From an uncultured Arenicella sp. (lineage in GTDB: Bacteria > Pseudomonadota > Gammaproteobacteria > Arenicellales > Arenicellaceae): a stretch of DNA of 39,659 bases. The stretch lies in contig CALIVT010000035.1 of the NCBI GenBank assembly GCA_938048185.1, forward strand, positions 1 through 39,659, in the 5' to 3' direction. Below are positions 3,349 to 36,987 of the stretch, one piece after another. The notes under the pieces were generated by a model. The model was not told where the DNA came from and made no database searches. It saw only the letters and a list, made by a program, of their open reading frames with translations. Numbering within the stretch: position 1 is the first letter of the stretch; each line of letters begins with the position of its first letter. A program made the position numbers and the translations under genes.

Positions 3349-3367
3349 CACCTCTCACTAAGAGGTG
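3349..3367 (+). promoter_or_regulatory. Short stem-loop just ahead of the giant secreted protein
   Basis: CACCTCT (3349-3355) and AGAGGTG (3361-3367) form a perfect 7-bp stem with a 5-base loop, 24 bases before the preferred TTG start. There is no T-run after it, so it is not a classical terminator. It may tune translation or mark the end of the upstream operon. Confidence 0.35.
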
Positions 3368-3391
3368 CATGGCATATCAGGGTGGATTAAA

Positions 3392-19910: not shown

Positions 19911-21548
19911 ATGAACAGTAACAATTTGAAGAGTATGCGCAAGGTGGCGATATTCATCGCGCTTGCGATAGCCCCGGCATCTCAGTCCTTTGCCCAATCT
20001 ACTATTGGCGGCGATCTAAACACGGCCACTCAGATTAAAGGTGGCGTACTTAATGCTGCAATTGGCAACAGCGCAAATGCCAAAACCAAGATCAACTCGG
20101 TAAAAAACGCCAAGATTGGTGGTGATGCTGAGTTGGATTTAAATGTGACCGGTGGTGTGTTGAACGCCGCCATCGGTAAAAATGTCACTGCTAAAACAAA
20201 CCTCGGCAGTGTCGAGGGCTCTAAGGTTGGTCAGGATTTAAGCATTAAGACTGATGTTAAAGGCGGCGTTTTGAATGCCTCGATTGGATCTATGGGCATT
20301 GCCGAAACGAATGTAGGTTCAATCAAGGGCTCGAAAATAAATGGTTCGGCTGATATCGATACCAGCATTAAAGGCGGGGTGCTAAATGCGGGAATAGGCA
20401 AGGGCACATACGCAAAAACCAACGTTGGCTCAATCACTGGCAGTCAGGTTAAGGGCGATGTCGCCATTGCTACCGAGATCAAGGGCGGCGTTCTCAACGC
20501 GGCTATTGGTACCGGCACCTTTGCTGAGACCAATCTAGGGTCGGTTAAAAAGAGTAAGGTCGGTGGCGATGTTAATGTTGATACTAAGCTTGTTGGCGGT
20601 GTTCTTAATGCCGCGATCGGCACTGCGGGTTACGCTAAGGCCAGTGTTGGTTCCATAGAAGACTCTAAGATCAAAGGCGACGCCTTGATTAAAACCGATA
20701 TTAAAGGCGGTGTGCTTAACGCGGCAATTGGCACGGGCACTTATGCCAAGACCAACGTGGGGTCTGTCGCGGGCTCTAAGCTGGGCGGTGATCTTAATAT
20801 GCAAACCAAGGTTAAAGGCGGAATTGTTAACGCGGGGATAGGCTATGGCGCGGCGGCCACGACTAATGTCGGTTCCATCAATGGTTCCAAAATTGGTGGT
20901 GATGCAACGGTTAAAACTACGCTCAAGGGGGCAGTCGTTAACGCCGCTATCGGCGCGGGCACCTACGCAGCAACAAATCTAGGCTCGGTAAACAAATCTA
21001 AGGTTGGCGGCAATCTTGACTTAGATACTGAATTAAAAGGCGCCGTTGTTAATGCCGCGATTGGTGCTGCAGGCTATGCCAAGACCAACGTCGGTTCGCT
21101 AGATAAAGCTAAGATTGGTGGCGATGCAACGCTTAAAACGTCGGTAAAGGGCGCGGTGGTGAACGCAGCAATTGGGCTTGGGACCTTGGCCAAGACCAAT
21201 GTTGGCTCGGTTAGCAACTCTCGAATAGGCGGTAACTTAGATATGGACACCAGAATCAAAGGTGCGGTTGTAAACGCGGCTATTGGCGTGGGCAGTATGG
21301 CCAAAACGGATATCGGTTCAGTGAGTAATTCGAGAGTCGCCGGTAATGCAGATATTAGTACCAACGTTAACGGCGCGGTAGTGAACGCGGCCATTGGGCT
21401 AGGCACAAGAGCGAAAACCAAAATCGGTTCGGTGGTTAACACCACGGCGTCGAGTGTGACGATGAATACAAAATTGACGGGTGGCTCGGTTAATGCCGCA
21501 ATTGGGTTGGGTAGTTCCTCTTCTGTAAGTCACGGTTCTGTGGATTAG
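19911..21548 (+). CDS. Secreted 37-residue-repeat protein A (14 repeats), candidate fibre subunit
   Basis: The product is 545 residues. A Sec signal peptide (RKVAIFIALAIAPASQSFA, cleavage near FAQ|S) is followed directly by 14 repeats of 37 residues with no other domain. The consensus is about KIGGDxxxxTxIKGG, then VLNAAIGxGTxAKTNVGSV plus xxS. Copies 9-13 use GAVVNAAIG where earlier ones use GGVLNAAIG. The mature protein has no Cys and almost no aromatics, and is rich in G, N, A, T, S and V. Such regular short strands separated by GxxN/GS turns suggest a beta-solenoid or amyloid-like fibre subunit. It is not curlin (no QxGxxN pattern) and not RTX. The leader has CTAACCAT at 19889-19896. Neighbours downstream include a near-paralogue and a CsgG-like lipoprotein. 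A structural surface role is inferred. Confidence 0.85.
   Translation: MNSNNLKSMRKVAIFIALAIAPASQSFAQSTIGGDLNTATQIKGGVLNAAIGNSANAKTKINSVKNAKIGGDAELDLNVTGGVLNAAIGKNVTAKTNLGSVEGSKVGQDLSIKTDVKGGVLNASIGSMGIAETNVGSIKGSKINGSADIDTSIKGGVLNAGIGKGTYAKTNVGSITGSQVKGDVAIATEIKGGVLNAAIGTGTFAETNLGSVKKSKVGGDVNVDTKLVGGVLNAAIGTAGYAKASVGSIEDSKIKGDALIKTDIKGGVLNAAIGTGTYAKTNVGSVAGSKLGGDLNMQTKVKGGIVNAGIGYGAAATTNVGSINGSKIGGDATVKTTLKGAVVNAAIGAGTYAATNLGSVNKSKVGGNLDLDTELKGAVVNAAIGAAGYAKTNVGSLDKAKIGGDATLKTSVKGAVVNAAIGLGTLAKTNVGSVSNSRIGGNLDMDTRIKGAVVNAAIGVGSMAKTDIGSVSNSRVAGNADISTNVNGAVVNAAIGLGTRAKTKIGSVVNTTASSVTMNTKLTGGSVNAAIGLGSSSSVSHGSVD
20001..21545 (+). repeat. 111-bp coding tandem repeat array, 14 units
   Basis: Thirteen units of exactly 37 codons and a last one of 34 codons. 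At the second-strand position GGDL-type and GGDA-type units mostly alternate (L,A,L,A,V,V,A,L,A,L,A,L,A,V), giving a 222-bp super-period with a phase slip around units 5-7. The DNA copies have diverged far more than the protein, so selection keeps the repeat. Confidence 0.92.
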
Positions 21549-21679
21549 CTACGATGGTGACTGATTTTACAGTTGAGCGAACAGTCGTGTGACTAAGCCC
21601 AGAGCAGCGGCCGGTCTGGACATTAAAACTGGTCTCTAGCCCTTATTTATCATAGCCCTCATCTATCACGCGTTATGCG

Positions 21680-21718
21680 AAAAAGCGAATATCGAAAGAT
21701 ATTCGCTTTTTTTCTTTT
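21680..21718 (+). terminator. Strong intrinsic terminator after repeat protein A
   Basis: AAAAAGCGAATATC (21680-21693) pairs perfectly over 14 bp with GATATTCGCTTTTT (21698-21711) around a GAAA tetraloop, followed by TTTCTTTT. It ends the repeat-protein-A transcript, so repeat protein B has its own promoter. The A-rich 5' arm also allows it to work in the other direction. The rest of the 21,549-21,849 gap holds the shared element and inverted repeat listed separately. Confidence 0.9.
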
Positions 21719-21747
21719 AAAATCAAATGTTTAAATATTTTTTTACT

Positions 21748-21774
21748 AAATTGTAAATTTTTTAAAACTTTTTC
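21748..21774 (+). promoter_or_regulatory. Shared upstream element TGTAAA-N4-TTAAAACT, copy 2
   Basis: TGTAAA TTTT TTAAAACT begins at 21752 and ends at 21769, about 80 bp before the start of repeat protein B and just after the terminator. It has the same spacing as the copies near 19776 and 29511, and a TTTTC follows as in copy 1. Confidence 0.5.
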
Positions 21775-21794
21775 TAAGGTGCTCCGTTAATCAC

Positions 21795-21819
21795 TGTGTA
21801 ACCCCTAATTAGTTACACA
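21795..21819. promoter_or_regulatory. Inverted repeat TGTGTAAC-N9-GTTACACA
   Basis: A perfect 8-bp inverted repeat with a 9-base spacer, 30 bp before the start of repeat protein B. It could be an operator for a dimeric regulator or a stem-loop in the leader. ACCTAACCAT follows at 21824-21833 and then ACGGAG, the ribosome site. Confidence 0.55.
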
Positions 21820-21849
21820 AACTACCTAACCATATTACGGAGTGATCCA

Positions 21850-23256
21850 ATGAAATTATTTAAACTTACAGCAGTAGCCGCGCTTACGTGCTCAGCACTT
21901 TTTATCTCAAGCGCTAATGCTCAATCGGCAATTGGCGGCGACCTTGAACTTAGCTCTGACATCAAAGGTGGCGTGTTGAACGCGGCTATTGGTAAAGAAA
22001 ATACCGCGTCCACTAGCATTAACTCACTTAAAAATGTTGAAGTTGGTGGCAATGCAAAGGTCGACACAACACTTGAAGGTGGTGTGCTGAATGCCGCTAT
22101 TGGTAAAAAGAACACAGCGGTAACCAAGCTAGGCTCGGTTGAAGAAACTAAAGTTGGCGGTGATTTAGAAGTAGTGACCGATGTTAAGGGCGGAATTCTA
22201 AACGCAGCAATCGGTAAAGGTAATGAGGCGCGCACTACCGTTGGTTCGATAACTGGCAGCGACATTACCGGCAACGCAACGCTAGATACGACTATTAAAG
22301 GTGGTGTATTAAATGCTGCGATCGGTAAAAACAACAAAGCGAGTACAAGCATTGGCGCGGTAGCCGATTCGAAGGTCGGTGGTGACTTAGTGGTCGACAC
22401 AACGATCACGGGTGGCGTGCTGAATGCTGCGATTGGCAAGAACAATGAAGCGACCACTCGTGTAGGGTCGGTTGAAGGCAGTGATATTACCGGCAACGCA
22501 ACTATCGTAACTGACCTGAAAGGCGGCGTGTTAAACGCAGCGATTGGTAAAAACAACAAAGCCACTACTAACTTAGGCGCGGCAGTTGACGCAAATGTTG
22601 GTGGCGATCTTCAAATAGACACCAAAGTTACGGGTGGCATTTTGAACGCTGCAATCGGTAAAGGGAATGTTGCTGAGACTAACGTTGGCTCGTTGCTTGA
22701 TTCAACGGTTGGCGGCAATGCGGTAATCGAAACCGATGTCAAAGGTGGCATACTCAACGCCGCAATTGGTAAAGGAAACCGAGCGGTTACGAACGTCGGT
22801 TCAGTAAAGGGATCTGAAGTCGGCGGTAACCTTGCAATGACCACTATTATCAAAGGTGGTGTGCTAAATGCAGCGATTGGCAAATCGAATGTGGCCGAGA
22901 CGAATATCGGCTCAATGGTCGGTTCAAACGTGACCGGAAATGCCGATATAAATACCGTCATTAAAGGCGGAGTGTTGAACGCAGCGATCGGTAAAAGCAA
23001 TACGGCTGTGACGAACATCGGTTCGGTCATGGGCTCTGAAATTGGTGGAGATTTAAGCGTTGATACCAACATTAAAGGTGGCGTACTAACGGCTGCGATT
23101 GGTAAAGGAAATACTGCTAAAACCAGCATTGGTTCAATTGAGAACTCGAACATTACGGGCAGCGCAACGCTCAATACCAATATCACCGGCGGAGTGCTAA
23201 ACGCCGCAATTGGCAAAGGTAACAACTCAGAAGTAAGCATCGGGTCTGTTCAGTAG
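21850..23256 (+). CDS. Secreted 37-residue-repeat protein B (12 repeats), candidate fibre subunit
   Basis: The product is 468 residues. The signal peptide MKLFKLTAVAALTCSALFIS is cut near ANA|QS, then come 12 repeats of 37 residues (the last is 35). The consensus is about KVGGDLxxxTxIKGGVLNAA, then IGKGNxAxTNIGSVxGS. The repeats are more regular than in protein A: the block GG(V/I)LNAAIGK is almost invariant, the one exception being LTAAIGK in unit 11. The units alternate strictly between GGDL-type and (T/G)GNA/GSA-type, so the real building block is 74 residues. There is a good ribosome site (ACGGAG). It is clearly a paralogue of protein A, and the pair would fit a major/minor or nucleator/subunit arrangement as in CsgA/CsgB; that is inference. 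A large hairpin without a T-run follows the gene. Confidence 0.87.
   Translation: MKLFKLTAVAALTCSALFISSANAQSAIGGDLELSSDIKGGVLNAAIGKENTASTSINSLKNVEVGGNAKVDTTLEGGVLNAAIGKKNTAVTKLGSVEETKVGGDLEVVTDVKGGILNAAIGKGNEARTTVGSITGSDITGNATLDTTIKGGVLNAAIGKNNKASTSIGAVADSKVGGDLVVDTTITGGVLNAAIGKNNEATTRVGSVEGSDITGNATIVTDLKGGVLNAAIGKNNKATTNLGAAVDANVGGDLQIDTKVTGGILNAAIGKGNVAETNVGSLLDSTVGGNAVIETDVKGGILNAAIGKGNRAVTNVGSVKGSEVGGNLAMTTIIKGGVLNAAIGKSNVAETNIGSMVGSNVTGNADINTVIKGGVLNAAIGKSNTAVTNIGSVMGSEIGGDLSVDTNIKGGVLTAAIGKGNTAKTSIGSIENSNITGSATLNTNITGGVLNAAIGKGNNSEVSIGSVQ
21928..23253 (+). repeat. 111-bp coding tandem repeat array, 12 units, strict 222-bp super-period
   Basis: Eleven units of 37 codons and a last of 35. 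Odd units read (I/V)GGDL or GGNL and even units GNA or GSA, without exception, so duplication probably proceeded in two-unit steps or the fold needs alternating units. Confidence 0.93.
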
Positions 23257-23270
23257 TCGCTAGGGCAGAG

Positions 23271-23306
23271 TTTACAAGGGGTTGGCCCTACCCAACCCCT
23301 TGTAAA
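23271..23306 (+). promoter_or_regulatory. 15-bp perfect hairpin between repeat gene B and the downstream genes
   Basis: TTTACAAGGGGTTGG (23271-23285) pairs completely with CCAACCCCTTGTAAA (23292-23306) around a 6-base loop. No T-run follows. It could be a factor-dependent terminator, or an mRNA-stabilising or attenuating structure that keeps the abundant subunit transcript separate from lower expression of the secretion genes downstream. Confidence 0.7.
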
Positions 23307-23431
23307 TAGCGTCAAGCGAAGGCACTAGTCGCCAAAGTTTCGATGCTGCACCCTGGTTTTACCGATTATATAAGGCTGTATCGAATACCCCTGAAAGCTC
23401 TCCCCATACTTAACCTAACCGGAGCTCTACA

Positions 23432-23782
23432 ATGAAAGCACTTAATAAACTTGTTGTTGCATTTGTCGCCTGCTCATCACTCTCAGTGTTACTGCTTAGT
23501 GAAAAGAGCTTTGCTGGCGAGATCATCTTTGATGATCAAGCCAATATGAAAATCTCACGTTTGATCACCAAAGCGCGCGTACTAAAAAATACGCGTGGTA
23601 AAGACGTGGTCGAGAACGACCCGAGTGCGCAGGCAGAACAGGGTGTCGAAAGTATTGGGCAAGTGGGCTGTGGCGGCATTGACATCGCTAATCAAGCGCC
23701 ACCACGTCCAGGGCGAGCCCCACGCACGACAGAAGTTTTCATCTTAGGCGATGTTATCAACGCCAATAACAAGTGTAACTAG
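23432..23782 (+). CDS. Small secreted Cys-containing protein of the fibre locus
   Basis: The product is 116 residues with a signal peptide (NKLVVAFVACSSLSVLLLS, cleavage near SFA|GE). The ATG follows ACCTAACCGGAG, which contains both the recurring leader motif (23413-23420) and a GGAG ribosome site. The mature protein has an N-terminal charged half and a C-terminal part with VGCGGIDIAN and FILGDVINANNKC, two Cys-containing blocks near the end; the C-terminal Cys could form a disulfide with the first. I do not recognise a named family. Its place just before the CsgG-like gene suggests an accessory or chaperone role analogous to CsgE/CsgF or HfaA; that is inference. Confidence 0.65.
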   Translation: MKALNKLVVAFVACSSLSVLLLSEKSFAGEIIFDDQANMKISRLITKARVLKNTRGKDVVENDPSAQAEQGVESIGQVGCGGIDIANQAPPRPGRAPRTTEVFILGDVINANNKCN

Positions 23783-23815
23783 CCCGCACTCGGCGCAGCT
23801 AACGGACGAATAAAG

Positions 23816-25534
23816 ATGATCTACTTTCCTAAAAAAGCATTAGCGATCTGTTTGCTCACAAGCGTGCTGACGGCGTGTATCTCGACTCATGTAAATCAAG
23901 TTGAGAGTGACATCCAGATAGCACGCAAGGGGCCTAAGGAGCTGCCTAAACGTAATATCACTGATTTTTCGAAGGGCCTACGGTGCATGGACGACTTGTT
24001 CTTGGCGTTTGGAGCAACCCCTGAAGACTATCCAATTTTAATAGAAAATATTGATGATAAAACCACAAAGGTAAACGCCGGGACTCGGCAAATGATGATC
24101 AGCGCCATTAGTGATATGACGAAACGCAGTCGCGCAATAAAGTTGGTCGCGTTCGGCGCGGACACCGGCAACTTGGTGATGTTCCTTGGTGAGTCAGGCA
24201 ATAAAGGCGTTTATCAAGACATTCCGGCGTTTGATATTATTGGTGCTATCTCGCAGCTCGATGATGGACTGGTGAAGAAACAAGCCGACGTATCAGGCGA
24301 AACCGCAGGCACGTGGGACGGGCGCAACGTTGGCGGCGGTGGCGGCGCGTCGCAGAGCTTAGGTGCCACGGTTTTGGCTTTAGATTTAAGCATATTAACG
24401 TCGTACAACATGGCAATTTTACCTGGCGCGCACACGCGCAACTCGGTTGCTCTCTATACCGGTGGGCAATCGCAAAGTTATGACGCCGGCATTAATAAAA
24501 CGGGTGTTAGCTTTAGTATCTCTTCGAACCACAAAGACCCAACGGCGCAAGGTCTGCGTGCGTTGGTTGAACTCTCGTCCATTGAGTTGGTGGGTAAACT
24601 CGCGAAATTACCTTATTGGCAATGCTTAGGTATGGACCCAGAGCACGAGGAAATTCGAAATGAAATATCCGATTGGTACTTTCAGTTAAATCAGTCGAAT
24701 CTGCTGCACACAACGCTAAAGGTTCAGCTCTATCTGCGTGGCTACTATACCGGCGAGATTAATGAGGAGGTGACTGAAGACTACCTGCTTGCCGTTCTTC
24801 GTTATAAGCAGCGTTTGGGTTTGCCACTGCACGCGACGGTAGATAAAGCATTTTATGCGGCGTTTTTAAATGCCACGCCAACAACAATTGAACCTAGAAA
24901 AATGGCTTATATTGCGAAGACTAAGCACGGCTTATACGACGATGTTTTGGAGCTGACAGAACAGCGAAATCGTCAAATTCGCGAAGCACGTGAGGCGGAG
25001 CTTGAATCCGAGGTGTCGACAACACGCAAAGCGAAATCGCGACCGAGTAAAAGGTCAGGTAAAAAATCACGCAAGAAGAATAACGATGAATTGGCCGAGC
25101 AAGTTGCGCAAGTGCACAGCTCAATGCAACTGCACGTCAGCGATGCGCAGCGGCGGGATGTTTATCAGGTTGGTGACGAGATAGAGATGTTGATTTCGTC
25201 AAACACCAGCGGGTTTGTGAACTGCTACTTTCAACGCGGGGAAGAGTTTGTAAAAGTTTTTCCAAACCGCTTTTCGACTAATGGATTTATTGGCGGGGAA
25301 GGTGCAATCTTCATGCCTGATAGCACTGAATATTCTTTCATCGCCGAACAAGTCCAAGAAGAGTTGCTGTGCTATCTGACTAAGCGACCAGTCACCTCAG
25401 ACTTGCCGGCAGAGGTTGCGGTAGAAGATTTCTCAACCCTACAGGTGAGCAGCCAAGCAGAACTCGATCAGGCGTATCAACGCGCTAGCAATAATCGTTT
25501 CACCAAAGCAACGCATCAGATTTTAGTGCAGTGA
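23816..25534 (+). CDS. CsgG-like outer-membrane lipoprotein with peptidoglycan-binding and DUF4384 domains
   Basis: The product is 572 residues. A lipoprotein signal ends in LTAC with lipidated C21. Residues about 30-272 show the CsgG/HfaB pattern: a DIIGAISQLDDG strand, a Gly-rich segment (GGGGGASQSLG), LALDLSI and a final ALVELSSIELVGKLAKLPYW ending in QCL, which parallels the helix and tryptophan end of CsgG. Residues 290-353 are a PG_binding_1-like domain (LKVQLYLRGYYTGEINEEV). A very basic linker (K/R-rich, about 392-424) follows, then DUF4384 (about 440-530, with YQVGDEIEMLISSN and FPNRF). DUF4384 is often found with caspase-like proteins, and one is encoded in this cluster. I infer an outer-membrane secretion channel tethered to peptidoglycan. 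The CsgG assignment rests on pattern reading, not on a search. Confidence 0.75.
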   Translation: MIYFPKKALAICLLTSVLTACISTHVNQVESDIQIARKGPKELPKRNITDFSKGLRCMDDLFLAFGATPEDYPILIENIDDKTTKVNAGTRQMMISAISDMTKRSRAIKLVAFGADTGNLVMFLGESGNKGVYQDIPAFDIIGAISQLDDGLVKKQADVSGETAGTWDGRNVGGGGGASQSLGATVLALDLSILTSYNMAILPGAHTRNSVALYTGGQSQSYDAGINKTGVSFSISSNHKDPTAQGLRALVELSSIELVGKLAKLPYWQCLGMDPEHEEIRNEISDWYFQLNQSNLLHTTLKVQLYLRGYYTGEINEEVTEDYLLAVLRYKQRLGLPLHATVDKAFYAAFLNATPTTIEPRKMAYIAKTKHGLYDDVLELTEQRNRQIREAREAELESEVSTTRKAKSRPSKRSGKKSRKKNNDELAEQVAQVHSSMQLHVSDAQRRDVYQVGDEIEMLISSNTSGFVNCYFQRGEEFVKVFPNRFSTNGFIGGEGAIFMPDSTEYSFIAEQVQEELLCYLTKRPVTSDLPAEVAVEDFSTLQVSSQAELDQAYQRASNNRFTKATHQILVQ

Positions 25535-25599
25535 ATTACGCAGTCAGTAAAGAAGTAATGCAGCGAACTAAACTCGTTAACTTTTAAAGGCCTTAAAAA

Positions 25600-25989
25600 A
25601 TGAAATACGTCTGTTTTAATCTGATTTTAATTTTAGCGTGTGCTGATACTGCAAGCGCAGAGCTCGATCGTCCTGCGCCATCGCTTTTGATCGCAGATAA
25701 AAAGGTACCTGAAATCAAATCAGGCGGTAACTTGGCTGTGCCGCGTGTCAATAGCAATAGCGTAGTCGTTAAAAGTGTTAATGACGTTACTCCCGGTAAC
25801 ACAACCTTTAAAGACCATCAGTTCGACAAACGAAAACTTTTACGTTGTTGGCAATATGGGCAATTGATTGTCGCAGAGAATGGCTATCAATCGCCTGGCC
25901 CTAGTGGCCAAGTAATGCTCACCAAGGGCGCAGAACGCATGACGGGCTTCGACTTTGGTGATACATTTTGTCTTTACCTCGGTGGCTAA
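25600..25989 (+). CDS. Small secreted protein of the fibre locus, unknown function
   Basis: The product is 129 residues with a signal peptide (YVCFNLILILACADTASA, cut before ELD). AAAGG at 25,587-25,591 serves as ribosome site. The mature part has a proline-rich start (DRPAPSLLIADKKVPEIKSG) and a C-terminal domain with LLRCWQYGQLIVAENGYQSP and FDFGDTFCLYL, with two Cys likely paired. I do not recognise the family. Position between the CsgG-like and OmpA-like genes suggests an assembly or periplasmic accessory factor; that is inference. Confidence 0.65.
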   Translation: MKYVCFNLILILACADTASAELDRPAPSLLIADKKVPEIKSGGNLAVPRVNSNSVVVKSVNDVTPGNTTFKDHQFDKRKLLRCWQYGQLIVAENGYQSPGPSGQVMLTKGAERMTGFDFGDTFCLYLGG

Positions 25990-26035
25990 TCCTACTCAAG
26001 CCCCAGATAAACAAACCTAACCATAGAGAATTATC

Positions 26036-26584
26036 ATGAAAAAATTATCCGTTTTGATGGCAGGTGCTTTGTTTGCCTGCTCGGCCGTTGCGCAAGATCG
26101 CGTAACGCATCTAGGCGATGGAGTTGTCAGCGCTAAAACACTTATCGACGCGTTAACACCTAAGCCAAAATACAAAGTTCGCGGCATTCGATTTAACGCG
26201 CAAGACCAGGGCCCACCATCGGTTGCGCTAAGTGTGCATTTCGCACATGACTCGGCCGAGTTGTCCGAGCAAGCTTTAGCGCAGTTAAACCCCTTAGGTG
26301 AGGCGTTGAAGTCTGAGCAATTGGCCGCCTTTAGCTTCGCCATTGATGGCCATACCGACGCAAGTGGCAGTGAGCAATACAATATGACCTTGTCGCAACG
26401 CCGGGCCTTAGCGGTTGGCAATTATCTCTATGCCAACTATGGTGTGGATGCCACCCGACTGAATTTGACCGGTAAAGGCGAGAGCGAGTTGTACGACGCT
26501 GCACAGCCTAGGTCAGGCCTTAATCGACGCGTTCAAATCACCACTCTTGAAGCACCGCAACCGACTGACGCGCAGGAAGGCTAA
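26036..26584 (+). CDS. OmpA-family C-terminal domain protein
   Basis: The product is 182 residues. The signal peptide MKKLSVLMAGALFACSAVA is cut before QD. Residues about 60-175 are an OmpA/MotB peptidoglycan-binding domain: VHFAHDSAELSEQALAQLNP, IDGHTDASGSEQYNMTLSQR, RALAVGNYL, LTGKGESELY and GLNRRVQI, with the conserved Asp and Arg that bind diaminopimelate. There is no beta-barrel, so it is a periplasmic peptidoglycan anchor. The leader has ACCTAACCAT at 26015-26024. The next gene starts two bases after its stop. It probably anchors the cluster's envelope complex to the cell wall. Confidence 0.88.
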   Translation: MKKLSVLMAGALFACSAVAQDRVTHLGDGVVSAKTLIDALTPKPKYKVRGIRFNAQDQGPPSVALSVHFAHDSAELSEQALAQLNPLGEALKSEQLAAFSFAIDGHTDASGSEQYNMTLSQRRALAVGNYLYANYGVDATRLNLTGKGESELYDAAQPRSGLNRRVQITTLEAPQPTDAQEG

Positions 26585-26585
26585 A

Positions 26586-27383
26586 GTGAACATTATTGCT
26601 AAGGTCTTGTTTGCCGCTGTGATAGGGGTGGTTGGCGGTGTCGCCGTGGCTGAAACACCCAACCAGGTTAAGTATAAAAATGTCGTGATTGGCGAAGGTT
26701 GTGCGAGCACCTGTGTCGATGGAGTATGTGAAAAAGTTTGTAAAGGCGATGATGCTGGCGTGATCACTCGCACCGGGCAGGCGAGTAGCAACGCGACTAG
26801 TAATGCTAGACGGTACGGCTTCGAAGATTTTAACAATCTTGAAATTACGGGTTTCGATGCCGTGATCGAATACGCTGAAGAGTTCTCAGTGTCGGCGCAA
26901 AGTAACACCGATAACTTAGAGCGTTTGAATGTCGAGTTGCTTGTTGGTGTGGCCGGCGTTGCCACTCTAAAGGTATCCGTAGTGGGTGATGTGTCCTTAG
27001 GTGGGGCGATAACAATTCGGACCCCCGACTTGCAGAGTATTACGGTCAGTGGCGACGCGGATGTTAGCATCAGCGGCTTTGTTCAAGATCAGGTTTTGAT
27101 AAGCGCATTCGAAAACGCTGATGTAACGTTTAAGGACAATGCCTTTGGCGCACTGATACTAACTGTTAGTGGTAACGCAGACGTTAGCCTAGTCAAAAGT
27201 AAAGTGACCACTGCTGAAGTTTCATTAGACGGTAACTCGAACGCTGGTTTGAATTTTGTGGACAGCGGGGGAGAACTCACTGGGTCTGTGACTGGCAGTG
27301 CTGATCTTGAGTATTGCGGCAATCCTGAACGGCGCATAAGTGTTGCCGGCATGGCCGACTCAAATCAAGTAGAGTGCGACTAA
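26586..27383 (+). CDS. GIN/DUF2807 domain putative adhesin
   Basis: The product is 265 residues from GTG 26586, which has AGGAAGG five bases upstream and yields a signal peptide (IIAKVLFAAVIGVVGGVAVA, cut before ETP). A frame extension upstream inside the OmpA gene is not used. The mature protein begins with a four-Cys segment (GCASTCVDGVCEKVC), then residues about 80-255 have the GIN/DUF2807 look: FNNLEITGFDAVIEYA, followed by short repeated strands with SGDADVSI, SGNADVSL and GSADLEY, which predict a right-handed beta-helix of the head-domain type. Coupled to OmpA upstream and directly abutting the caspase-like gene. Surface or periplasmic location is inferred. Confidence 0.78.
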   Translation: MNIIAKVLFAAVIGVVGGVAVAETPNQVKYKNVVIGEGCASTCVDGVCEKVCKGDDAGVITRTGQASSNATSNARRYGFEDFNNLEITGFDAVIEYAEEFSVSAQSNTDNLERLNVELLVGVAGVATLKVSVVGDVSLGGAITIRTPDLQSITVSGDADVSISGFVQDQVLISAFENADVTFKDNAFGALILTVSGNADVSLVKSKVTTAEVSLDGNSNAGLNFVDSGGELTGSVTGSADLEYCGNPERRISVAGMADSNQVECD

Positions 27384-29390
27384 ATGCAACTTAGCCTGTG
27401 TTTTATGTCATTAATTAAGAAACTCGCTTTTTTATTCTTTGGTATCGCGTTGATGGTGCTTTTTAGCTCGGTGGCGATGCCTGCGCGCGCCAACACCTTG
27501 ACCGGAGAGCGTTCGCTAATTGTTGATTGCTTGTTACCCGGCAAGGTGCGTCAGCTTGGTATTAATCGCACTTATGTATCGCGCAAGCGGCCGACCAAAA
27601 CGTCGGCTAACGATTGCGAGATAAAGGGTGGTGACTACGTTAAATTTGATCGCGCGAGTATGGCGTCCTCTTTGAACGTATGGCAAGAGTCCGCGTCAAA
27701 GGGCGACGCGCAGGCGCAATTTTTCGTGGGTGAAATTTTTGAGAAAGGCATGGGCCAGGAGCCCGACTATGAGCTCGCGGTAACTTGGTATCGACGAGCT
27801 ATTAAGCAAGATTATGCGCCCGCTAAAATGAGTTTAGGACGCTTATACGAGCTCGGCTTAGGGGTCGAAAAAGACCTAGTGAAAGCGATGAATTTGTATC
27901 GACAAGCATCGGGCTTAGACCAAGATGAGATTGCTTATGCTTCCGTTTTCGAACGTATTCGCGATAATGATCAACTGCGCATCGCCGAGTTAAAAGTCGC
28001 ATTGGAGCAGCAACGCCGAAAAGCAAAATCGGCCGAACGTCAATCGCAAGTCTTAGAGTCTGATCTCAGTCGCGCTCAACATTCGCTAAACCAGCTTAGA
28101 TCAGAAATACAGCAACTCAAGCGCCAGTTGAATCAAGCAGGCGACGAGAAAGCAACTTTGATTAAGGCCCAATTAGACAACAAGCTTGCTGACGTATCGA
28201 ACCAAGTTGCGCGAACCGCAGCACTGGAGGAGCAGTTACGTGCCGCGCAAGAATTGCTCGAAACGGCTAACGCAAAGCTTGCCAATTTGACGCCCGATGG
28301 GGAGCCTAAGGTGTCGCTAAAATGGCCGACATTCAATCCGCTAGACGGTCTTCTAACAACCACGGTGTCGGCCGGTTCAATTGTGAATATCGTTGGCGCC
28401 ATAGAAAATTTTGCTAACGTTAAATCGTTTAGCATTAATGGTCAGGCTTACAGTCTAGATGCGAACGGGCTCTTTTTAAAATCGTTAGATGTGGGGCGTA
28501 AGACCGTCACACTGAGCTTAGAAGTGGTCGACCAATCTGACAAGAAAACGCTCACTAAGCTAGTGGTGGAGCCTTCGGACGACATCAACATAGTCCTTGC
28601 TGGGGCGGGCGCGTTAACGCGGGCTAAGTTTGATTTCGGCACTTACCATGCTCTGGTCATTGGCAATAATAGCTATGATTTAGATAAAGGTTGGGACCCG
28701 CTAGATACCGCGGTTAATGATGCGACCGAGGTCGCAAATGTGCTGCAAAATCAATACGGATTTGAGGTGAGACTCGAGTTGAATGCGGATCGCGATACGA
28801 TGTTGACCGCTCTAGAAGAGATGCGCAAAAAGCTTACTAACAAGGATAATTTACTGGTTTACTACGCTGGCCACGGGCTCGTAGACCCTGAAAACGATCA
28901 AGGTTATTGGGTGCCCGTCGATGGCTCGGCTGACAGCGCGGTACGTTGGGTTTCAAACGCAAGCATCACGGATCAAATTCGCGCGATGACGGCGCGTAAC
29001 GTTATGGTGATAGCCGATTCATGTTATTCCGGCTCTTTAATGCGTTCGGGTATTGTGACACTGCGAAGCGGTTTGTCTGCTGAGAAAAAAGCGTTGCGAT
29101 TAAACGAAGACGTTAGCTTGATGACGCGTGTGGCACTGTCATCGGGGGGATTACAACCGGTGATCGACTCGTTAGACAATAGTGAACACTCGGTTTTCGC
29201 TAATGCCTTGTTGAAAGTGCTAAAAGGCAATAGAGACTTGTTGGATGCAGATTCGTTAGCGACTCAGGTTGCGCACTCGGTTGCGATTGCGACTAAAGAC
29301 AATGTCCGGCAAGTCCCCCGCTATGCCCCGTTGGCGGCGGGTGGTCATCAGGGCGGAGAGTTTTATTTTACGCCTGTTAAAAAGCCGTAA
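27384..29390 (+). CDS. Caspase-like (peptidase C14) protein with Sel1 repeats and coiled coil
   Basis: The product is 668 residues; its ATG follows directly on the TAA of the GIN gene. The N-terminal hydrophobic segment (LAFLFFGIALMVLFSSVAMP) and PARA|N look like a signal peptide. Two Sel1-like repeats span about 106-175 (GDAQAQFFVGEIFEKGMG; APAKMSLGRLYELGLGV). A long coiled coil covers about 195-300. A beta-domain follows (about 305-405), then a C14 caspase fold (about 418-660) with YHALVIGNNSY, the catalytic pair H497 (YYAGHG) and C547 (ADSCYSG), and the later SSGGLQPVID segment. It appears catalytically intact. An exported caspase-like protease beside a DUF4384 lipoprotein suggests processing or surveillance of envelope or fibre components; that is inference. 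Confidence 0.88.
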   Translation: MQLSLCFMSLIKKLAFLFFGIALMVLFSSVAMPARANTLTGERSLIVDCLLPGKVRQLGINRTYVSRKRPTKTSANDCEIKGGDYVKFDRASMASSLNVWQESASKGDAQAQFFVGEIFEKGMGQEPDYELAVTWYRRAIKQDYAPAKMSLGRLYELGLGVEKDLVKAMNLYRQASGLDQDEIAYASVFERIRDNDQLRIAELKVALEQQRRKAKSAERQSQVLESDLSRAQHSLNQLRSEIQQLKRQLNQAGDEKATLIKAQLDNKLADVSNQVARTAALEEQLRAAQELLETANAKLANLTPDGEPKVSLKWPTFNPLDGLLTTTVSAGSIVNIVGAIENFANVKSFSINGQAYSLDANGLFLKSLDVGRKTVTLSLEVVDQSDKKTLTKLVVEPSDDINIVLAGAGALTRAKFDFGTYHALVIGNNSYDLDKGWDPLDTAVNDATEVANVLQNQYGFEVRLELNADRDTMLTALEEMRKKLTNKDNLLVYYAGHGLVDPENDQGYWVPVDGSADSAVRWVSNASITDQIRAMTARNVMVIADSCYSGSLMRSGIVTLRSGLSAEKKALRLNEDVSLMTRVALSSGGLQPVIDSLDNSEHSVFANALLKVLKGNRDLLDADSLATQVAHSVAIATKDNVRQVPRYAPLAAGGHQGGEFYFTPVKKP

Positions 29391-29531: not shown

Positions 29532-29799
29532 GTATGTTTTAATCGTTATATATTGAAAGCGCTAGAGAGCACGACACTTTATTGGCGAATTCAGTTGTTT
29601 TACGGATGAGTGTCAACGCCCCTACAGCGTAGATATACGTTCAGATTAGTTGAAAGGGTACTTTCAGTTGATCGTTTAACCGTCGCTATGGGTAGTAGCG
29701 GTTATTTTTGTTTTAGAGCCGGCTTTGGGTGTCGAGCTTTAAGCATAGGTTCGTGATGTGGCAATGGGTTGTCGCAGCGCGAAATTTAGGAACCTAACC

Positions 29800-31821
29800 A
29801 TGACTCCTGCTACACACTTCGCTAGCTTACGAGCTAAGCGCTTGGTTTTCTCAGACAATTCAGCGGCCCCCAAATCCATTAGCACGCTTTTGATGGTGTT
29901 AGCTGCTATCGCTTTTACGCTTCAGACTACTACTACCTTGGCAATGGATACGACTGTTTGTCCGACGGGGTTCAGTGAATCAGGTCGAAGTGATACCGCT
30001 TTGACCTGCAATTACCTCGGAATGGTTACTGGCGATTTAGGGGGTACGCCACCCTCTCAAACTGAACAGGGGCGTCAACTAATCAACGACGCATCGCTTG
30101 AATGTCGACGTGTTGGCACCGTGGTGAGTGCCGGGTCAGTCGGAAGTAATGGCGTGACGCTCACCTGTAATGTGCCGTTGACGCCCGAAGAAATTGCTGA
30201 AATAGAGCGCGAGCGTGAAGAAGAAGCGGAGCGTGAGCGGGAACGCGAAGAAGAAGCAGAACGTGAACGAGAACGTGAAGAAGAAGCGGAACGTGAACGA
30301 GAACGCGAAGAAGAAGCGGAACGCGAGCGTGAAGAGGAAGCCGAGCGTGAACGTGAGCGTCAAGAAGAAGCTGAACGTGAGCGCGCACGCGAAGAGCGTG
30401 CTGAACGTGAACGGGTCAGAGAAGAGGAAGCGCAGCGAGAACGAGAGCGCCAAGAGGCAATTAGACTCGAAGAGGAAGCGCGTAGTGCTCCCTTTACATT
30501 CGATCAACCCGACGAAGTAAGTGGTCGACCTACTGAATTTTCCGTCGCGTCGGGTCTAGTCGCGACCTGTACGTCGTTAAGAACTGTCGAAAACCCTACG
30601 CCAGCGCAAACGGACCTACTAGAGCGCTGCATTGATATCAATCGCGAAGAGTCTAACTTAGTGAAAGCGTCCGTTTTAGGTCAAGTTGCGGCAAAACAAT
30701 ACGCGGACATTGGTCAGTCACTCACTTTCCTAAACATGATTCAAGTTGGAAATATCGGGGGCCGTTTAGCGGCGATTACTCCGACTTTGCGACAAAATTC
30801 GAAAGATGTAGCGTCGTCGGACTTAAGTCACCCAGATCAGGGTTTGCTCGCGAACTCTGTGAATCAAGGCGCCCAATACGGTGGTGCCGCAGGCGATGAG
30901 ACTTCCGGGCGTTTTGGTGTATTCGTGCTGGGTACCAAAGGCGATGGCGAAAAAGATGTTTCGTTGCTTTCAAACGGGTTCGACTATCGAAGCGAATCAA
31001 TGACTGTTGGTATCGACTATATGTTCAACGCCTCAACCGTGGTTGGCTTAGCGTACGGTTACGGTAAAACTGATTCGGAATTTACCGGACGTACCGGACG
31101 CATGGATATCGACAGCGAGACAGTCACATTGTACGGCGCGAAGGCGATTAGAAATAATCTCACCCTAGATGCGATTATCGGGATTGGAGACGTTACTACT
31201 GACAGTGAGCGGCGTATGGACTTTACCGCGCACGGTAAACGCGTTAATCAACTTGCGAACAGCACGATTGACTCAGATCAAAAGCTGCTTAGTCTAGGGC
31301 TGACCAAGAGCTACGAAACTTGGCTGAATATCGATGTTGGCGCGCGGTTCAACTACATTGAAACCGATATAAATCGTTTCTCCGAGACCATTGACGCCAG
31401 CGCTCCTGGCTTTGGCTTGGCCTTAGAAATTGACGACTACACAATGAAGTCATCCACCACAGACCTGAGTCTAAACCTGTCCAAGGCTTTTAGCTCTAGC
31501 TGGGGTGTGGTGATACCCCAAGCGCGTTTGAGCTGGGTGCACGAGTTCGAGAGTGGCGACCGTGTAATGCGCGGCCGTTTTCTCGCTGATACCTCAACGT
31601 TGGATTTTACCGACAGCGGCTTACAGATCTCAGCCGGTGGTGGCTCGACCTTGTTCAACGTTCCACTTGAACAGCTCGACGCGGACTACGGCAATTTACT
31701 GATTGGTGTAAACGCGTTGCTGCCAAATCAGTTCAGTTTGAATGCCAGCTTGAATCGAGTGCTTGGCATACAGGGCTTTGATCATACCTATTGGTCACTT
31801 TCAGCGCGTAAAGATTTTTGA
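29800..31821 (+). CDS. Autotransporter-like outer-membrane protein with E/R-rich helical stalk
   Basis: The product is 673 residues from ATG 29800, preceded by AGGAA eight bases upstream and by ACCTAACC ending at the ATG itself; the frame is open to GTG 29758. A long signal sequence (LLMVLAAIAFTLQTTTTLAM) is followed by a short Cys-containing region, an 87-residue E/R-rich repeat, a second short Cys region (ATCTSL, LERCIDIN), and a C-terminal barrel of about 290 residues. The barrel has alternating strands (SMTVGIDYMFNASTVVGLAY, GYGKTD, LGLTKSYETWLNIDVGARFN) and ends YWSLSARKDF, with the terminal Phe expected for BAM substrates. The barrel identity is firm in style; the passenger is unknown. 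The shared upstream elements place it in the regulon of the repeat proteins. Confidence 0.85.
   Translation: MTPATHFASLRAKRLVFSDNSAAPKSISTLLMVLAAIAFTLQTTTTLAMDTTVCPTGFSESGRSDTALTCNYLGMVTGDLGGTPPSQTEQGRQLINDASLECRRVGTVVSAGSVGSNGVTLTCNVPLTPEEIAEIEREREEEAEREREREEEAEREREREEEAEREREREEEAEREREEEAERERERQEEAERERAREERAERERVREEEAQRERERQEAIRLEEEARSAPFTFDQPDEVSGRPTEFSVASGLVATCTSLRTVENPTPAQTDLLERCIDINREESNLVKASVLGQVAAKQYADIGQSLTFLNMIQVGNIGGRLAAITPTLRQNSKDVASSDLSHPDQGLLANSVNQGAQYGGAAGDETSGRFGVFVLGTKGDGEKDVSLLSNGFDYRSESMTVGIDYMFNASTVVGLAYGYGKTDSEFTGRTGRMDIDSETVTLYGAKAIRNNLTLDAIIGIGDVTTDSERRMDFTAHGKRVNQLANSTIDSDQKLLSLGLTKSYETWLNIDVGARFNYIETDINRFSETIDASAPGFGLALEIDDYTMKSSTTDLSLNLSKAFSSSWGVVIPQARLSWVHEFESGDRVMRGRFLADTSTLDFTDSGLQISAGGGSTLFNVPLEQLDADYGNLLIGVNALLPNQFSLNASLNRVLGIQGFDHTYWSLSARKDF
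30199..30459 (+). repeat. E/R-rich 30-bp coding repeat (87 residues)
   Basis: Nine units of mostly 10 residues, consensus EREREREEEA, with one unit of 8 and the last of 9. The regular E/R i,i+4 spacing fits a stable single alpha-helix, a rigid spacer between the exported head and the barrel. The repeat is likely to vary in length. It creates long spurious open frames on the other strand and in the +2 frame. Confidence 0.9.
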
Positions 31822-31892: not shown

Positions 31893-33506
31893 ATGAAATT
31901 ATTTGTACTAACATTCTGTGTCTGTGCGTTATTGCAGACATCAACCGCTGCGTACGGCCAAGCCAATCTTACACTTGGGCCGATTAACAAAACTATTGAT
32001 CTCAGTTTTACGTCGATCTCGGCGACGGTTACTAATCGTGGTGACGCTAATAGTACTCGTTTCAGAATTCGTGTCTGGGCGTCTGTTGATCGGGTTATCG
32101 ACGCAAGCGATTTAGTCGAAACTTCGGCGGTTCTCGAGCCGCTACCGCCGTTTGTCCCGGGCCAAACGGGGCGTCAATCTGAGCGCCAGTCAATAAATTT
32201 CAGGTTTCCTTTACCACCAGAGCTAGATCAAAGCCCATTGCCTAGATTAACCGGAGATACGTTTACGCCGTCTGAGTGGATTGGTCGAGAGATGTTTGCT
32301 CGGGCTTGTATTTTAGATGAGTCTGGAGCGACCGAATTAGTCTGTACAAGCTTAGTGAGCGACGGTAACGCGGTGCTCGTGATGCCTCCCAGATTTGGAA
32401 TTGTCGGCGGTCAAGAAATAAAGTTTGTCGGTCCTGAGACAACTAGCAATGGTATTAGCTCGGAATTTATTGAGCTTACGTGGCGCATCCCCCCTTTGGA
32501 CAACGGCACTCTTCTGATTGACGAGTATCGCTTCAGTCAACTTGATTTTAACGGGGCTAGAAGTCAAATCACTGTGCCGATAAACGAGCTTGAGGTTTTT
32601 ACAAATAGTTCTGGTGTGCAGATGTATCGCTTGAGACTGCTAAATCGAGAGCCTGGTAAGCGATATGGCTATAGCGCTGCAAGGCAAGTTTGTTTGAATG
32701 GTCTGTGTTCTTTTCCGTCGACCACTGGCAACGAGGTTAATAATCATGTTGGCAACACGTTTGCAAACATTATCGCGTCGACCGATTTGGATGGAAAAGT
32801 AGCACTCAATTGGGAATCCTTTGCGGCAATAGTCGGTGGCTATGACGTGACTAGGTGCGAAGTCGACACACCTTCAAATTGCGTAAAGCTCGCGTCTCGT
32901 ATACAGGGCACCGCGTTTGAAGACACGTCACCAGAACGCGGTAAACGTTATATCTATCACGTTGAAGTGTGTGATCGAGAGTCACCTAGCAATTTCCGAC
33001 AATGTTCGACTGGCCCTGGCCCGCTCTTTAGAGTAGGCGTTTCCAATCCCGGTAGCAGCAGTCTGGTCGATGAGTTCGAAGACGATGACACACCTGGTCA
33101 GGCGACGTTAGTAAGCCGCGATGTTTCTCAGCTGCATAGCTTCGATTCACCCCTGGATGATGACTGGTTGAAGGTCTCACTAGTTAAGGCGGGAAGGCTG
33201 GTTATAGAAACAGCATCTTTTGGTGGTGAGTCGGTGGATACAGTCTTGACTCTTTATGACGCTCAGCAGGCGCTCATCGCGTTGAATGACGATAAAGACC
33301 CGGCTAATTCTCCGGGCAGTTTTTCGAAAATTGAGAGTGAATCCTTGTCGGCCGGAGACTACTTCGTCAAAGCGACGCACTACAAGCTGCCGGGCGGTGA
33401 ATTTCCTGCACCAACCGCAAATAATTACTTGCTGAGTGTGACGTTCGTGGGTGCGAGAGTCGATATCACTCCGATAATTCAATTGCTACTTTCAGATGAA
33501 CAGTGA
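31893..33506 (+). CDS. Secreted protein with PPC-like C-terminal domain, paralogue 1
   Basis: The product is 537 residues with a signal peptide (KLFVLTFCVCALLQTSTAA, cut near YGQ|AN). The N-terminal part resembles CARDB-type domains (ISATVTNRGDANSTRFRIRV). The middle has fibronectin-III-like strands. Residues about 390-525 match the bacterial pre-peptidase C-terminal (PPC) domain: DEFEDDDTPGQAT, HSFDSPLDDDWLKVSL, SVDTVLTLYDAQ and SLSAGDYFVKATHY. No protease domain is present, so the PPC domain is used here on its own. The C-terminus is ITPIIQLLLSDEQ. It is a tandem paralogue of the next gene. No good ribosome site is visible. Confidence 0.8.
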   Translation: MKLFVLTFCVCALLQTSTAAYGQANLTLGPINKTIDLSFTSISATVTNRGDANSTRFRIRVWASVDRVIDASDLVETSAVLEPLPPFVPGQTGRQSERQSINFRFPLPPELDQSPLPRLTGDTFTPSEWIGREMFARACILDESGATELVCTSLVSDGNAVLVMPPRFGIVGGQEIKFVGPETTSNGISSEFIELTWRIPPLDNGTLLIDEYRFSQLDFNGARSQITVPINELEVFTNSSGVQMYRLRLLNREPGKRYGYSAARQVCLNGLCSFPSTTGNEVNNHVGNTFANIIASTDLDGKVALNWESFAAIVGGYDVTRCEVDTPSNCVKLASRIQGTAFEDTSPERGKRYIYHVEVCDRESPSNFRQCSTGPGPLFRVGVSNPGSSSLVDEFEDDDTPGQATLVSRDVSQLHSFDSPLDDDWLKVSLVKAGRLVIETASFGGESVDTVLTLYDAQQALIALNDDKDPANSPGSFSKIESESLSAGDYFVKATHYKLPGGEFPAPTANNYLLSVTFVGARVDITPIIQLLLSDEQ

Positions 33507-33686
33507 CGCGAGCTGGCTAGTTCGAGCTTTGGTGATCTGTGGTCAAACGTTTTTTGGATCAGATGACGCTAGACAAAGGCGCAATTATGTTTTGACCGTT
33601 CAAGGCTGTCCTCACATATGCCCGTCACTTTACGCAGGCTCGGTTTTTATTTGAGGCGTATTTTATTTCTCCAAGAGGCTTATTGT

Positions 33687-35195
33687 ATGACACGTTTTTA
33701 TAAATTGTGGCTTTCGTTATTGATGCTAGTTAGTAGTCTAGATGCGGCTGCACAAATTGTTTTTTCTGGGAGTGGCGGCGGCCGACTACCTGTGCTCATG
33801 GCGCAGTCAGGGTATGGTCAAGATATTCAGAACGATGGCGCGACCACTAGCCCCGCGTACAAGATTAGAGCCTGGGCCTCAACCGACCGAGCATTTCAAG
33901 ATAACGAAGTAATATCGGATATCGACTACCCGGGACTCGGTCCGGGCGAAATGGTCCGTCGAAGCTATACGCACCCCACGCCACTGGTCACTGACAGTCG
34001 CTTGTTAAAAGACATAATTGGCGAGCCCTATTTCTTTCAAATGTGTATCGAAATAGTTGGCTCGGCGCCAACATGTCGTATCGACTCGCGAGCGGTAAAC
34101 ACGCCAGATCCTGGCGTAACCGCCGCGTCATCAGGCACCACGAATAACGGCGTCGAGATAGAGTATACGGTAGTCACTCGTAACGGTGAGACTCCATTTG
34201 ACTTTCTGCGGATAGGGTGGCGAGACCGTGCTTTAGATGGGGGTCCGGCTCAAGCTGAAACAGTGATTGACGTGCCCGCCGCCGCTTTGACGATTGTCGA
34301 AGACGGTCAAACCCGAAAACGTTATCGATTTGTGTACGAATCGACGCCGGGTGTTCCTGGAAATTTCAGGGTACGTCACTGCTATTCACTCCCTGTTGGG
34401 CCGACTTGTTTACTTACGCCACGCTCTTCAACCGAGCTTGGTTATCGAACTGCCAATGCCAGTGCGACCCAAGGAAGTTTTAACGACCAAGTTCAAGTTG
34501 AATGGCCGCGCTTTGCTTTCGCTGAAGGCTTCGATGCATATCAGATTACCCGCTGCCGAGAGGGCGCTCCGCAAGACTGTGTGCTAAGTAGGGTAGCGTC
34601 GATAGGCCCGTTAGAACGCTTTGTTGATACGGCACCGGTGCGAGGTGAACGCTATATCTATACCATTGATGCGTGCATTGGGACTAGTCTCAATAGCTGC
34701 GACCCTGAAATTTATATGAACATCGCCGTTTCACAAATCGGTTTTGTTGGCCTGGTCGACGAATTCGAGGAAGATGACACCGCTGCTCAAGCTACTTTTG
34801 TTGACAAAGATGTTTCTCAAGTACACAGTTTTGATACGCCTATTGATGATGATTGGTTGAGAATTTCTTTAGACAGACCCGGACGCATTGCGATTGAAAC
34901 CGCTGCGTTTAACGCTGAATCGGTGGATACCATTCTTACCTTGTTTGACGCTCAGCAAGTTGCGCTGGATGAAAATGACGACAAAGACCCGGCTAACGCG
35001 CCAGGCAGCTTTTCAAGAATTGAAACGGAGAGGTTAGATGCCGGAGAGTATTTTATCAAAGCGACCCATTACAAGCTGCCGGGCGGAGAGTTTCCGGCGC
35101 CTACGGCGAACAACTATGTGCTTAGTGTGGCGTTTTTAGACGCGAAAGCAGATCTTTCTCCAATAATTCAGTTGTTACTATTGGATGACGAATAG
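33687..35195 (+). CDS. Secreted protein with PPC-like C-terminal domain, paralogue 2
   Basis: The product is 502 residues from ATG 33687, chosen because CCAAGAGG lies 7 bases upstream and a signal peptide follows (TRFYKLWLSLLMLVSSLDAAAQ less two residues). The open frame runs back to 33618 without support. The layout is the same as paralogue 1, with the strongest similarity in the last 140 residues: DEFEEDDTAAQAT, HSFDTPIDDDWLRISL, ESVDTILTLFDAQQ, and KLPGGEFPAPTANNY, which is identical in both. It ends LSPIIQLLLLDDE. The 180-bp gap before it shows nothing definite. Confidence 0.8.
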   Translation: MTRFYKLWLSLLMLVSSLDAAAQIVFSGSGGGRLPVLMAQSGYGQDIQNDGATTSPAYKIRAWASTDRAFQDNEVISDIDYPGLGPGEMVRRSYTHPTPLVTDSRLLKDIIGEPYFFQMCIEIVGSAPTCRIDSRAVNTPDPGVTAASSGTTNNGVEIEYTVVTRNGETPFDFLRIGWRDRALDGGPAQAETVIDVPAAALTIVEDGQTRKRYRFVYESTPGVPGNFRVRHCYSLPVGPTCLLTPRSSTELGYRTANASATQGSFNDQVQVEWPRFAFAEGFDAYQITRCREGAPQDCVLSRVASIGPLERFVDTAPVRGERYIYTIDACIGTSLNSCDPEIYMNIAVSQIGFVGLVDEFEEDDTAAQATFVDKDVSQVHSFDTPIDDDWLRISLDRPGRIAIETAAFNAESVDTILTLFDAQQVALDENDDKDPANAPGSFSRIETERLDAGEYFIKATHYKLPGGEFPAPTANNYVLSVAFLDAKADLSPIIQLLLLDDE

Positions 35196-36874: not shown

Positions 36875-36987
36875 GCTTGTGCGTTAGTAGGGATTTGCGC
36901 AAGCATTGATGCTAATGGCTGTGCGGCTTTAACACAAGACCATACTCGTAGGATTAAGGATTCGCGTGGAGACGCAAATCGCGTGAG

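What the first reader, a model, noticed from the sequence alone, without database searches (positions are those of the whole stretch)
19911..29390. Candidate undescribed CsgG-type fibre system built on 37-residue repeats
Two secreted proteins made only of GG(V/I)LNAAIG repeats stand ahead of, and on the same strand as, a CsgG-like lipoprotein fused to peptidoglycan-binding and DUF4384 domains. With them are two small secreted Cys proteins, an OmpA-type anchor, a GIN-domain protein and an exported caspase-like protease. Curli (csgBA with CsgG/E/F) and holdfast anchoring (HfaA/B/D) have the same logic of channel, subunits and small helpers, but the subunit here is not curlin. The layout is seen; the CsgG relation comes from family pattern; the system is inferred.
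Basis: partly seen in the sequence, partly recalled or inferred. Interest (0 to 1): 0.88.

Follow-up and report, generated by a model that had tools for sequence, protein, structure and literature searches.

The report
CsgG-type surface-fibre secretion system
A marine bacterium carries a gene cluster that looks like a relative of the curli-fibre export machine, but with a different repeat-built subunit and a probably exported caspase-like protease beside it, and similar clusters turn up in distantly related bacteria.

Summary
Observation confirmed. rep1 and rep2 are repeat proteins of 14 and 12 units, 37 residues apart with one exception. The lipoprotein's N-terminal domain is CsgG-type: the 25 best PDB matches of its model come from CsgG or curli-complex entries, 15 of 47 aligned rows hit Pfam CsgG, not the window's own, and hhalign gives 91.8%.

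The system is wider than the window. Lipoprotein and repeat gene occur in the same 5 of 41 genomes. Of 79 lipoprotein loci, 37 carry smA; 28 of those have a repeat gene of period 31-39 (or double) upstream, against 2 of 42 without smA. A caspase-domain gene lies within 8 kb in 53 of 79. AlphaFold2 makes rep2 a confident all-beta repeat fold, read as beta-solenoid.

Not curli: no curlin, CsgE or CsgF match in the window's genome. Best reading: a wall-anchored CsgG-type channel exporting beta-solenoid subunits to the surface. Export and fibre formation are inferred. No paper listed by nine searches describes it.

The parts
19911..21548 (+). rep1: repeat subunit with leader, 545 aa, 14 units of 37 aa
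   Evidence: no Pfam family at E<=1
21679..21712 (+). terminator-like site between rep1 and rep2
   Evidence: 15-pair stem and T tract
21850..23256 (+). rep2: repeat subunit with leader, 468 aa, 12 units of 37 aa, predicted all-beta repeat fold (beta-solenoid)
   Evidence: AF2 pLDDT 92.3, pTM 0.87
23432..23782 (+). smA: small secreted protein with a two-Cys C-terminal motif (C..(V/I)xIGNV ... GDVIN..C in the family); abuts the lipoprotein gene in most loci where found
   Evidence: no Pfam family for the window member
23816..25534 (+). lipoprotein: CsgG-type domain (about 40-272), PG-binding-like stretch (about 296-350), DUF4384 (449-525)
25600..25989 (+). smB: small secreted protein with two Cys beyond the leader
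   Evidence: relatives in L034, L035, L038, weakly L047
26036..26584 (+). OmpA-type protein with leader
   Evidence: Pfam PF00691 1.3e-18
26547..27383 (+). GIN-domain (DUF2807) protein with leader; start uncertain
   Evidence: Pfam PF10988 2.7e-7
27384..29390 (+). Sel1 + coiled-coil + caspase (C14) protein with leader; YYAGHG and DSCYSG motifs
   Evidence: linkage
29758..31821 (+). autotransporter-barrel protein, possible accessory: relatives near the lipoprotein in L050, L051, L071, L072
   Evidence: Pfam PF03797 8.4e-34

Best explanation
A CsgG-type secretion and assembly system for surface beta-solenoid filaments. Steps: (1) rep1, rep2, smA, smB, OmpA, GIN and caspase proteins have leader-like N-termini and the CsgG-like protein has a lipobox Cys (read from sequence). 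(2) Its CsgG domain forms a ring channel in the outer membrane, held to the cell wall by its own PG-binding domain and by the neighbouring OmpA protein (fold predicted; membrane, oligomer and anchoring inferred). (3) rep1 and rep2, with no Cys or Pro and few or no aromatic residues, cross the channel unfolded and fold outside into stacked beta-solenoids (all-beta fold of rep2 predicted; export inferred from linkage). (4) smA, the small protein most tightly linked to the channel gene, is channel partner or nucleator, in the place that CsgF and CsgB hold in curli (inferred). (5) The caspase-like protease trims or clears subunits, or senses blocked export (linkage shown; role inferred).
For: CsgG fold. 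Lipoprotein and repeat gene in the same 5 of 41 genomes. smA in 37 of 79 loci (window included); 33 of 38 smA ORFs abut the lipoprotein upstream on its strand. Repeat gene within 2.7 kb upstream in 28 of 37 smA+ and 2 of 42 smA- loci; downstream 5 and 2. In those 30 loci the best period is 31-40 (74 for rep2) although sequence is not kept (GGVLNAAIG, QGGAFNMAAAQ, QxNxGxxN, IQGNTxIN). All-beta repeat model of rep2. Caspase-domain gene within 8 kb in 53 of 79 loci, while ten host genomes hold 24 such matches in about 39 Mb, the one in the window's genome being this gene. The smA label needs 4 changes on the 47-row lipoprotein tree against 12.2 in shuffles.
Against: No direct evidence of export, oligomer or fibre. 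The window lipoprotein alone does not reach Pfam CsgG. TM-scores to CsgG chains are modest (TMt 0.40-0.55) with rmsd 7-14; other proteins of partly similar fold (FlgT, HpaA, PelC) follow from E 4e-4 on; residues 156-179 have pLDDT mostly under 50. The rep2 model has no confident PDB match, I read the fold from the strand pattern without coordinates, and repeat proteins readily give confident models; no control was run. 9 of 37 smA+ loci have no upstream repeat gene by the rule: two have period 63 (L075, L076), four have smA at a contig end (L070, L092, L095, L104), L081 and L086 have one far away, L089 none seen. In the class survey 4 of 7 genomes with the CsgG-like part (G076, G245, G288, G218) give no smA match. 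G008 has a caspase relative but no lipoprotein match. Many loci are near relatives (Azospirillum above all), so counts are not independent; GIN is in 19 of 79 only, and no background rate was taken for OmpA.
Confidence: 0.66

Rival explanations
1. The CsgG-like protein is mainly an anchor, as proposed for HfaB: a cell-wall-bound ring that tethers surface beta-solenoid proteins or a polysaccharide, with little transport of its own.
For: PG_binding_1 in 42 of 47 rows and an OmpA gene within 8 kb in 61 of 79 loci stress anchoring. [quoted passage not shown]
Against: By eye no holdfast synthesis gene stands among the listed ORFs of the window (no search was run). Subunit genes sit beside the channel gene as in curli. 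HfaA and HfaD need HfaB to reach the outer membrane (same passages), so anchor and channel need not exclude each other.
Confidence: 0.17
2. The repeat proteins are beta-solenoids (adhesin, ice- or ligand-binding) that never polymerise; the channel only exports them.
For: Low-ranking Foldseek matches include a bacterial antifreeze protein and adhesins, none confident. rep1 and rep2 have about 1% Gln, unlike the Gln- and Asn-conserving curli repeats (PMC3521004, passages).
Against: In rep1 and rep2 the units run from the leader to the C-terminus with no other domain, and relatives such as those in L047 and L051 have only two units, which suits stacking.
Confidence: 0.15
3. Stress or immunity island: the caspase-like protease and DUF4384 are the core, and the CsgG-like protein is a pore that kills or signals.
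For: Caspase linkage. PADLOC models match the caspase domain (1.6e-11) and the OmpA domain as ZorB (3.4e-11). DUF4384 occurs in cyanobacterial orthocaspases (PMC7475262, passages).
Against: PADLOC gives nothing at E<=0.01 for the lipoprotein, rep1, smA, smB, GIN or autotransporter, and only a marginal match (0.0098) for rep2; OmpA and caspase matches are expected of such common domains. The parts have leaders, so they should act outside the cytoplasm.
Confidence: 0.07

Closest known systems
Curli (CsgBAC/CsgDEFG, nucleation-precipitation pathway)
   Same: CsgG-type lipoprotein linked to secreted repeat subunits and small helpers; beta-solenoid subunit (curli: PMC10192328, passages)
   Different: No curlin, CsgE or CsgF match in the window's genome; 37-residue period; lipoprotein also carries PG-binding and DUF4384 domains; OmpA, GIN and caspase genes added
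Caulobacter holdfast anchor HfaABD
   Same: CsgG-like HfaB with surface partners, one amyloid-like (PMC6707917, passages)
   Different: No caspase, DUF4384 or tandem-repeat genes are mentioned in the passages seen. HfaA and HfaD were not compared by sequence here
Fap (Pseudomonas)
   Same: Imperfect repeats; each FapC layer has five short strands (PMC12392863, passages); the rep2 model shows five strand stretches per unit in its last repeats, two of them two residues long
   Different: FapC leaves through FapF (PMC5137466, abstract start in a listing); FapC has three repeats parted by linkers, here 12-14 without linkers. That FapF is unrelated to CsgG is recalled
Orthocaspases with DUF4384
   Same: C14 and DUF4384 go together in cyanobacteria (PMC7475262, passages)
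   Different: Here DUF4384 sits on the CsgG-like lipoprotein and the caspase is a separate protein

Membership tests
CsgG family (lipoprotein N-terminal domain) | Sequence profile match to PF03783 | tested here: inconclusive
   Window protein none at E<=1; 15 of 47 rows, best 2.2e-5; hhalign 91.8%
CsgG family (lipoprotein N-terminal domain) | CsgG fold | tested here: met
   25 best Foldseek PDB matches are chains of CsgG or curli-complex entries, best E 1.4e-6; predicted model, TMt 0.40-0.55
CsgG family (lipoprotein N-terminal domain) | Lipobox Cys | tested here: met
   Cys21 invariant in the 9-row alignment
CsgG family (lipoprotein N-terminal domain) | Nonameric ring with a beta-barrel | not testable with these tools
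   Only single-chain prediction available
Curli system | Subunit with curlin repeats (PF07012) | tested here: not met
   0 matches in G000, 1 of 10 host genomes (G156, another contig); motif QxGxxN absent from rep1 and rep2
Curli system | CsgF (PF10614) | tested here: not met
   0 of 10 host genomes, E. coli control positive
Curli system | CsgE (PF10627) | tested here: not met
   0 of 10 host genomes, E. coli control positive
Curli system | Amyloid fibre on the cell surface | not testable with these tools
   Needs microscopy and dye binding
HfaABD holdfast anchor | HfaA and HfaD homologues | not tested
   No HfaA or HfaD sequence was used
HfaABD holdfast anchor | Holdfast polysaccharide genes | not tested
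   None recognised by eye among listed ORFs; no search
Fap system | FapF-type exporter | not tested
   No FapF search was run
Caspase-like protease (C14) | C14 domain with His and Cys motifs | tested here: met
   PF00656 1.6e-26; YYAGHG at 493, DSCYSG at 545; activity not shown

The most novel reading that the evidence does not exclude
A widespread branch of CsgG-type secretion, found in gamma-, beta- and alphaproteobacterial and Magnetococcales records, that builds surface filaments from 37-residue beta-solenoid units unlike curlin in sequence, through a channel welded to the cell wall, with a dedicated exported caspase that processes or polices the fibre: a bacterial caspase with a place in surface-fibre assembly.
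Probability: 0.35. Interest if true: 0.88.

Novelty: new variant of a known kind. Interest (0 to 1): 0.76.

Why it matters
CsgG-type export is known mainly from curli and the holdfast anchor. A further branch with another subunit, a cell-wall-anchored channel and a linked caspase would widen what the pathway can secrete, give new fibre-forming repeats and pores (CsgG serves in nanopore sequencing; recalled), and offer a testable job for bacterial caspases, whose functions are mostly unknown (recalled).

Tried and rejected
Growing the smB profile drifted (10, 17, 48, 95, 97 hits), so no smB count is used beyond the first comparison. A scan of viral contigs confirmed 0 of 19 pattern matches. The first genome-contig scan, with the window protein alone, confirmed 0 of 15; the alignment query gave 73 loci from 123 pattern matches. 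A profile of 15 repeat proteins against PDB sequences gave nothing good (best E 0.24). Of 120 repetitive leader-bearing ORFs found by the scan many are antisense ORFs, Sel1 or caspase proteins; I picked 55 as subunits by eye, and the motif counts rest on that choice; the counts do not. The idea that the Lys before GG in many units is a caspase site was dropped: units in L034 lack it. The smA- label is a lower bound: Azospirillum lipoferum 4B plasmid AZO_p4 (L174) and L051 have, by eye, diverged two-unit repeat proteins and a Cys-bearing small protein upstream of the lipoprotein. In one search, 117 of 369 genomes match the lipoprotein profile, but listed matches mostly cover PG-binding or DUF4384 alone; seven genomes show most of the CsgG-like part and one (G233) a short weak piece; the tool cut the list.
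Full report
Observation. rep1 has 14 and rep2 12 units, spaced by 37 residues with one spacing of 36; self-match scores exceed the best of ten shuffles more than twenty-fold. Pfam and NCBIfam show nothing better than weak, sub-cut-off matches for the two repeat proteins. Pfam confirms DUF4384, OmpA, DUF2807 and C14 with Sel1. A 15-pair terminator-like site lies between rep1 and rep2.

CsgG relation. The window lipoprotein does not match PF03783 at E<=1. Relatives do: 3 of 9 rows (best 0.0016) and 15 of 47 (best 2.2e-5, limit E<=1). PG_binding_1 matches 42 and DUF4384 46 of the 47. hhalign of the first 275 residues of the 47-row alignment against ten CsgG-family proteins (of 17 matches listed; two were taken with untrimmed starts) gives 91.8%, P 7e-7; five controls (C-terminal part against CsgG; N-terminal part against OmpA, caspase, GIN and smA alignments) give 0.8% or less. 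The AlphaFold2 model (pLDDT 81.0) has 25 chains of eight CsgG or curli-complex entries as its best PDB matches, best E 1.4e-6; FlgT, HpaA and PelC follow from 4e-4 on. TM-scores are modest and residues 156-179 poorly predicted.

Linkage. Among the own genome and 40 relatives, the lipoprotein is in 5 and the repeat protein in the same 5, on the same contigs. Only 3 of 18 same-genus genomes carry it. In the class, the single sequence finds the lipoprotein in 6 of 369 genomes; a smA profile hits 3 of 369, all three lipoprotein genomes, two of them of one genus, while four other genomes with the CsgG-like part give no smA match. The genome-contig scan gave 73 loci whose titles name Arenicella, Noviherbaspirillum, Thiodiazotropha, Magnetococcales, Azospirillum, Rodentibacter, rhodobacters and others; MAG names may be wrong. 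With five further loci and the window, after leaving out four duplicates, 79 were compared. smA is found in 37; 33 of 38 smA ORFs abut the lipoprotein upstream on the same strand. A leader-bearing repeat gene lies within 2.7 kb upstream in 28 of 37 smA+ and 2 of 42 smA- loci; downstream 5 and 2, further off 6 and 2. A caspase-domain gene lies within 8 kb in 53 of 79 (22 of 37 smA+, 31 of 42 smA-), OmpA in 61, GIN in 19. Ten host genomes hold 24 Pfam C14 matches in about 39 Mb; the window's genome has one, this gene; the 53 were counted with a profile grown from the window's domain, so the two figures are not strictly alike. In the genus, 69-100% identical near-full-length matches to the caspase protein lie in the three lipoprotein genomes; G008 has a 39-40% relative and no lipoprotein match. 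Many of the 79 loci are Azospirillum, so they are not independent.

Subunits. Sequence differs between lineages: GGVLNAAIG in the window, QGGAFNMAAAQ (L034), QxNxGxxN (L038), IQGNTxIN (L047), while the period stays at 31-40 in the 30 loci counted, rep2 scoring best at twice 37. In 55 subunits picked by eye, GxxNxA occurs 109 times against a shuffled mean of 24, and QxGxxN, the core of the minimal curli repeat (PMC3521004, passages), in 9 of 55 but not in rep1 or rep2. Ten relatives' subunits have no curlin match in Pfam. AlphaFold2 gives rep2 regularly repeating short strands, no helix, pLDDT 92.3, pTM 0.87, from 15 sequences; I read this as a beta-solenoid without seeing coordinates. The best Foldseek E is 6.4e-4 at probability 0.15; the highest probability among the 50 listed is 0.21; a Pontibacter CsgA is eighth (E 0.11).

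Not curli. Curlin, CsgF and CsgE models match nothing in the window's genome and 1, 0 and 0 of ten host genomes; the E. coli control rings each time. Two other CsgG-family genes lie elsewhere in the genome.

Literature. Nine searches were answered: 20 of 288 listed; 12 of 12; 5 of 5; 20 of 69; 10 of 36; 8 of 11; 2 of 2; 0; 0. By title and abstract start no listed paper describes this cluster. I saw passages of six papers and read none in full. The library is open-access, so absence is weak evidence.

Verdict. A conserved CsgG-type system distinct from curli; transport and fibre are inferences. On checking, the main confidence was lowered from 0.68 to 0.66 because the smA-lacking genomes of the class survey and the unseen coordinates of the rep2 model had been under-weighted; the island rival rose from 0.06 to 0.07.

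Noticed in passing
window 36032-37911 (-): Sigma-factor-like gene and a partner that by eye could be an anti-sigma protein; relatives of the sigma gene lie near the lipoprotein in L072, L082 and L086 and weakly in L087. Possible regulator.
   Followed up: partly
window 29758-31821: Autotransporter-barrel protein with a long Glu/Arg repeat; relatives near the lipoprotein in L050, L051, L071, L072.
   Followed up: partly
window 31893-35195: Two neighbouring proteins that look like paralogues, the first with a near-cut-off pre-peptidase C-terminal (PPC) match; both match one protein in L035/L072.
   Followed up: no
G000:C18:77418-77990 and G000:C13:120506-120997 (L001, L002): Two other CsgG-family genes in the same genome.
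   Followed up: no
L174 (Azospirillum lipoferum 4B plasmid AZO_p4): By eye a diverged copy of the system (two-unit repeat protein, smA-like protein, lipoprotein, OmpA) next to FHA and PP2C genes.
   Followed up: partly
L111: Two smA genes, one on each strand, about 2 kb apart.
   Followed up: no
window 3365-12211: A single 2948-residue protein with many repeated-looking stretches by eye.
   Followed up: no
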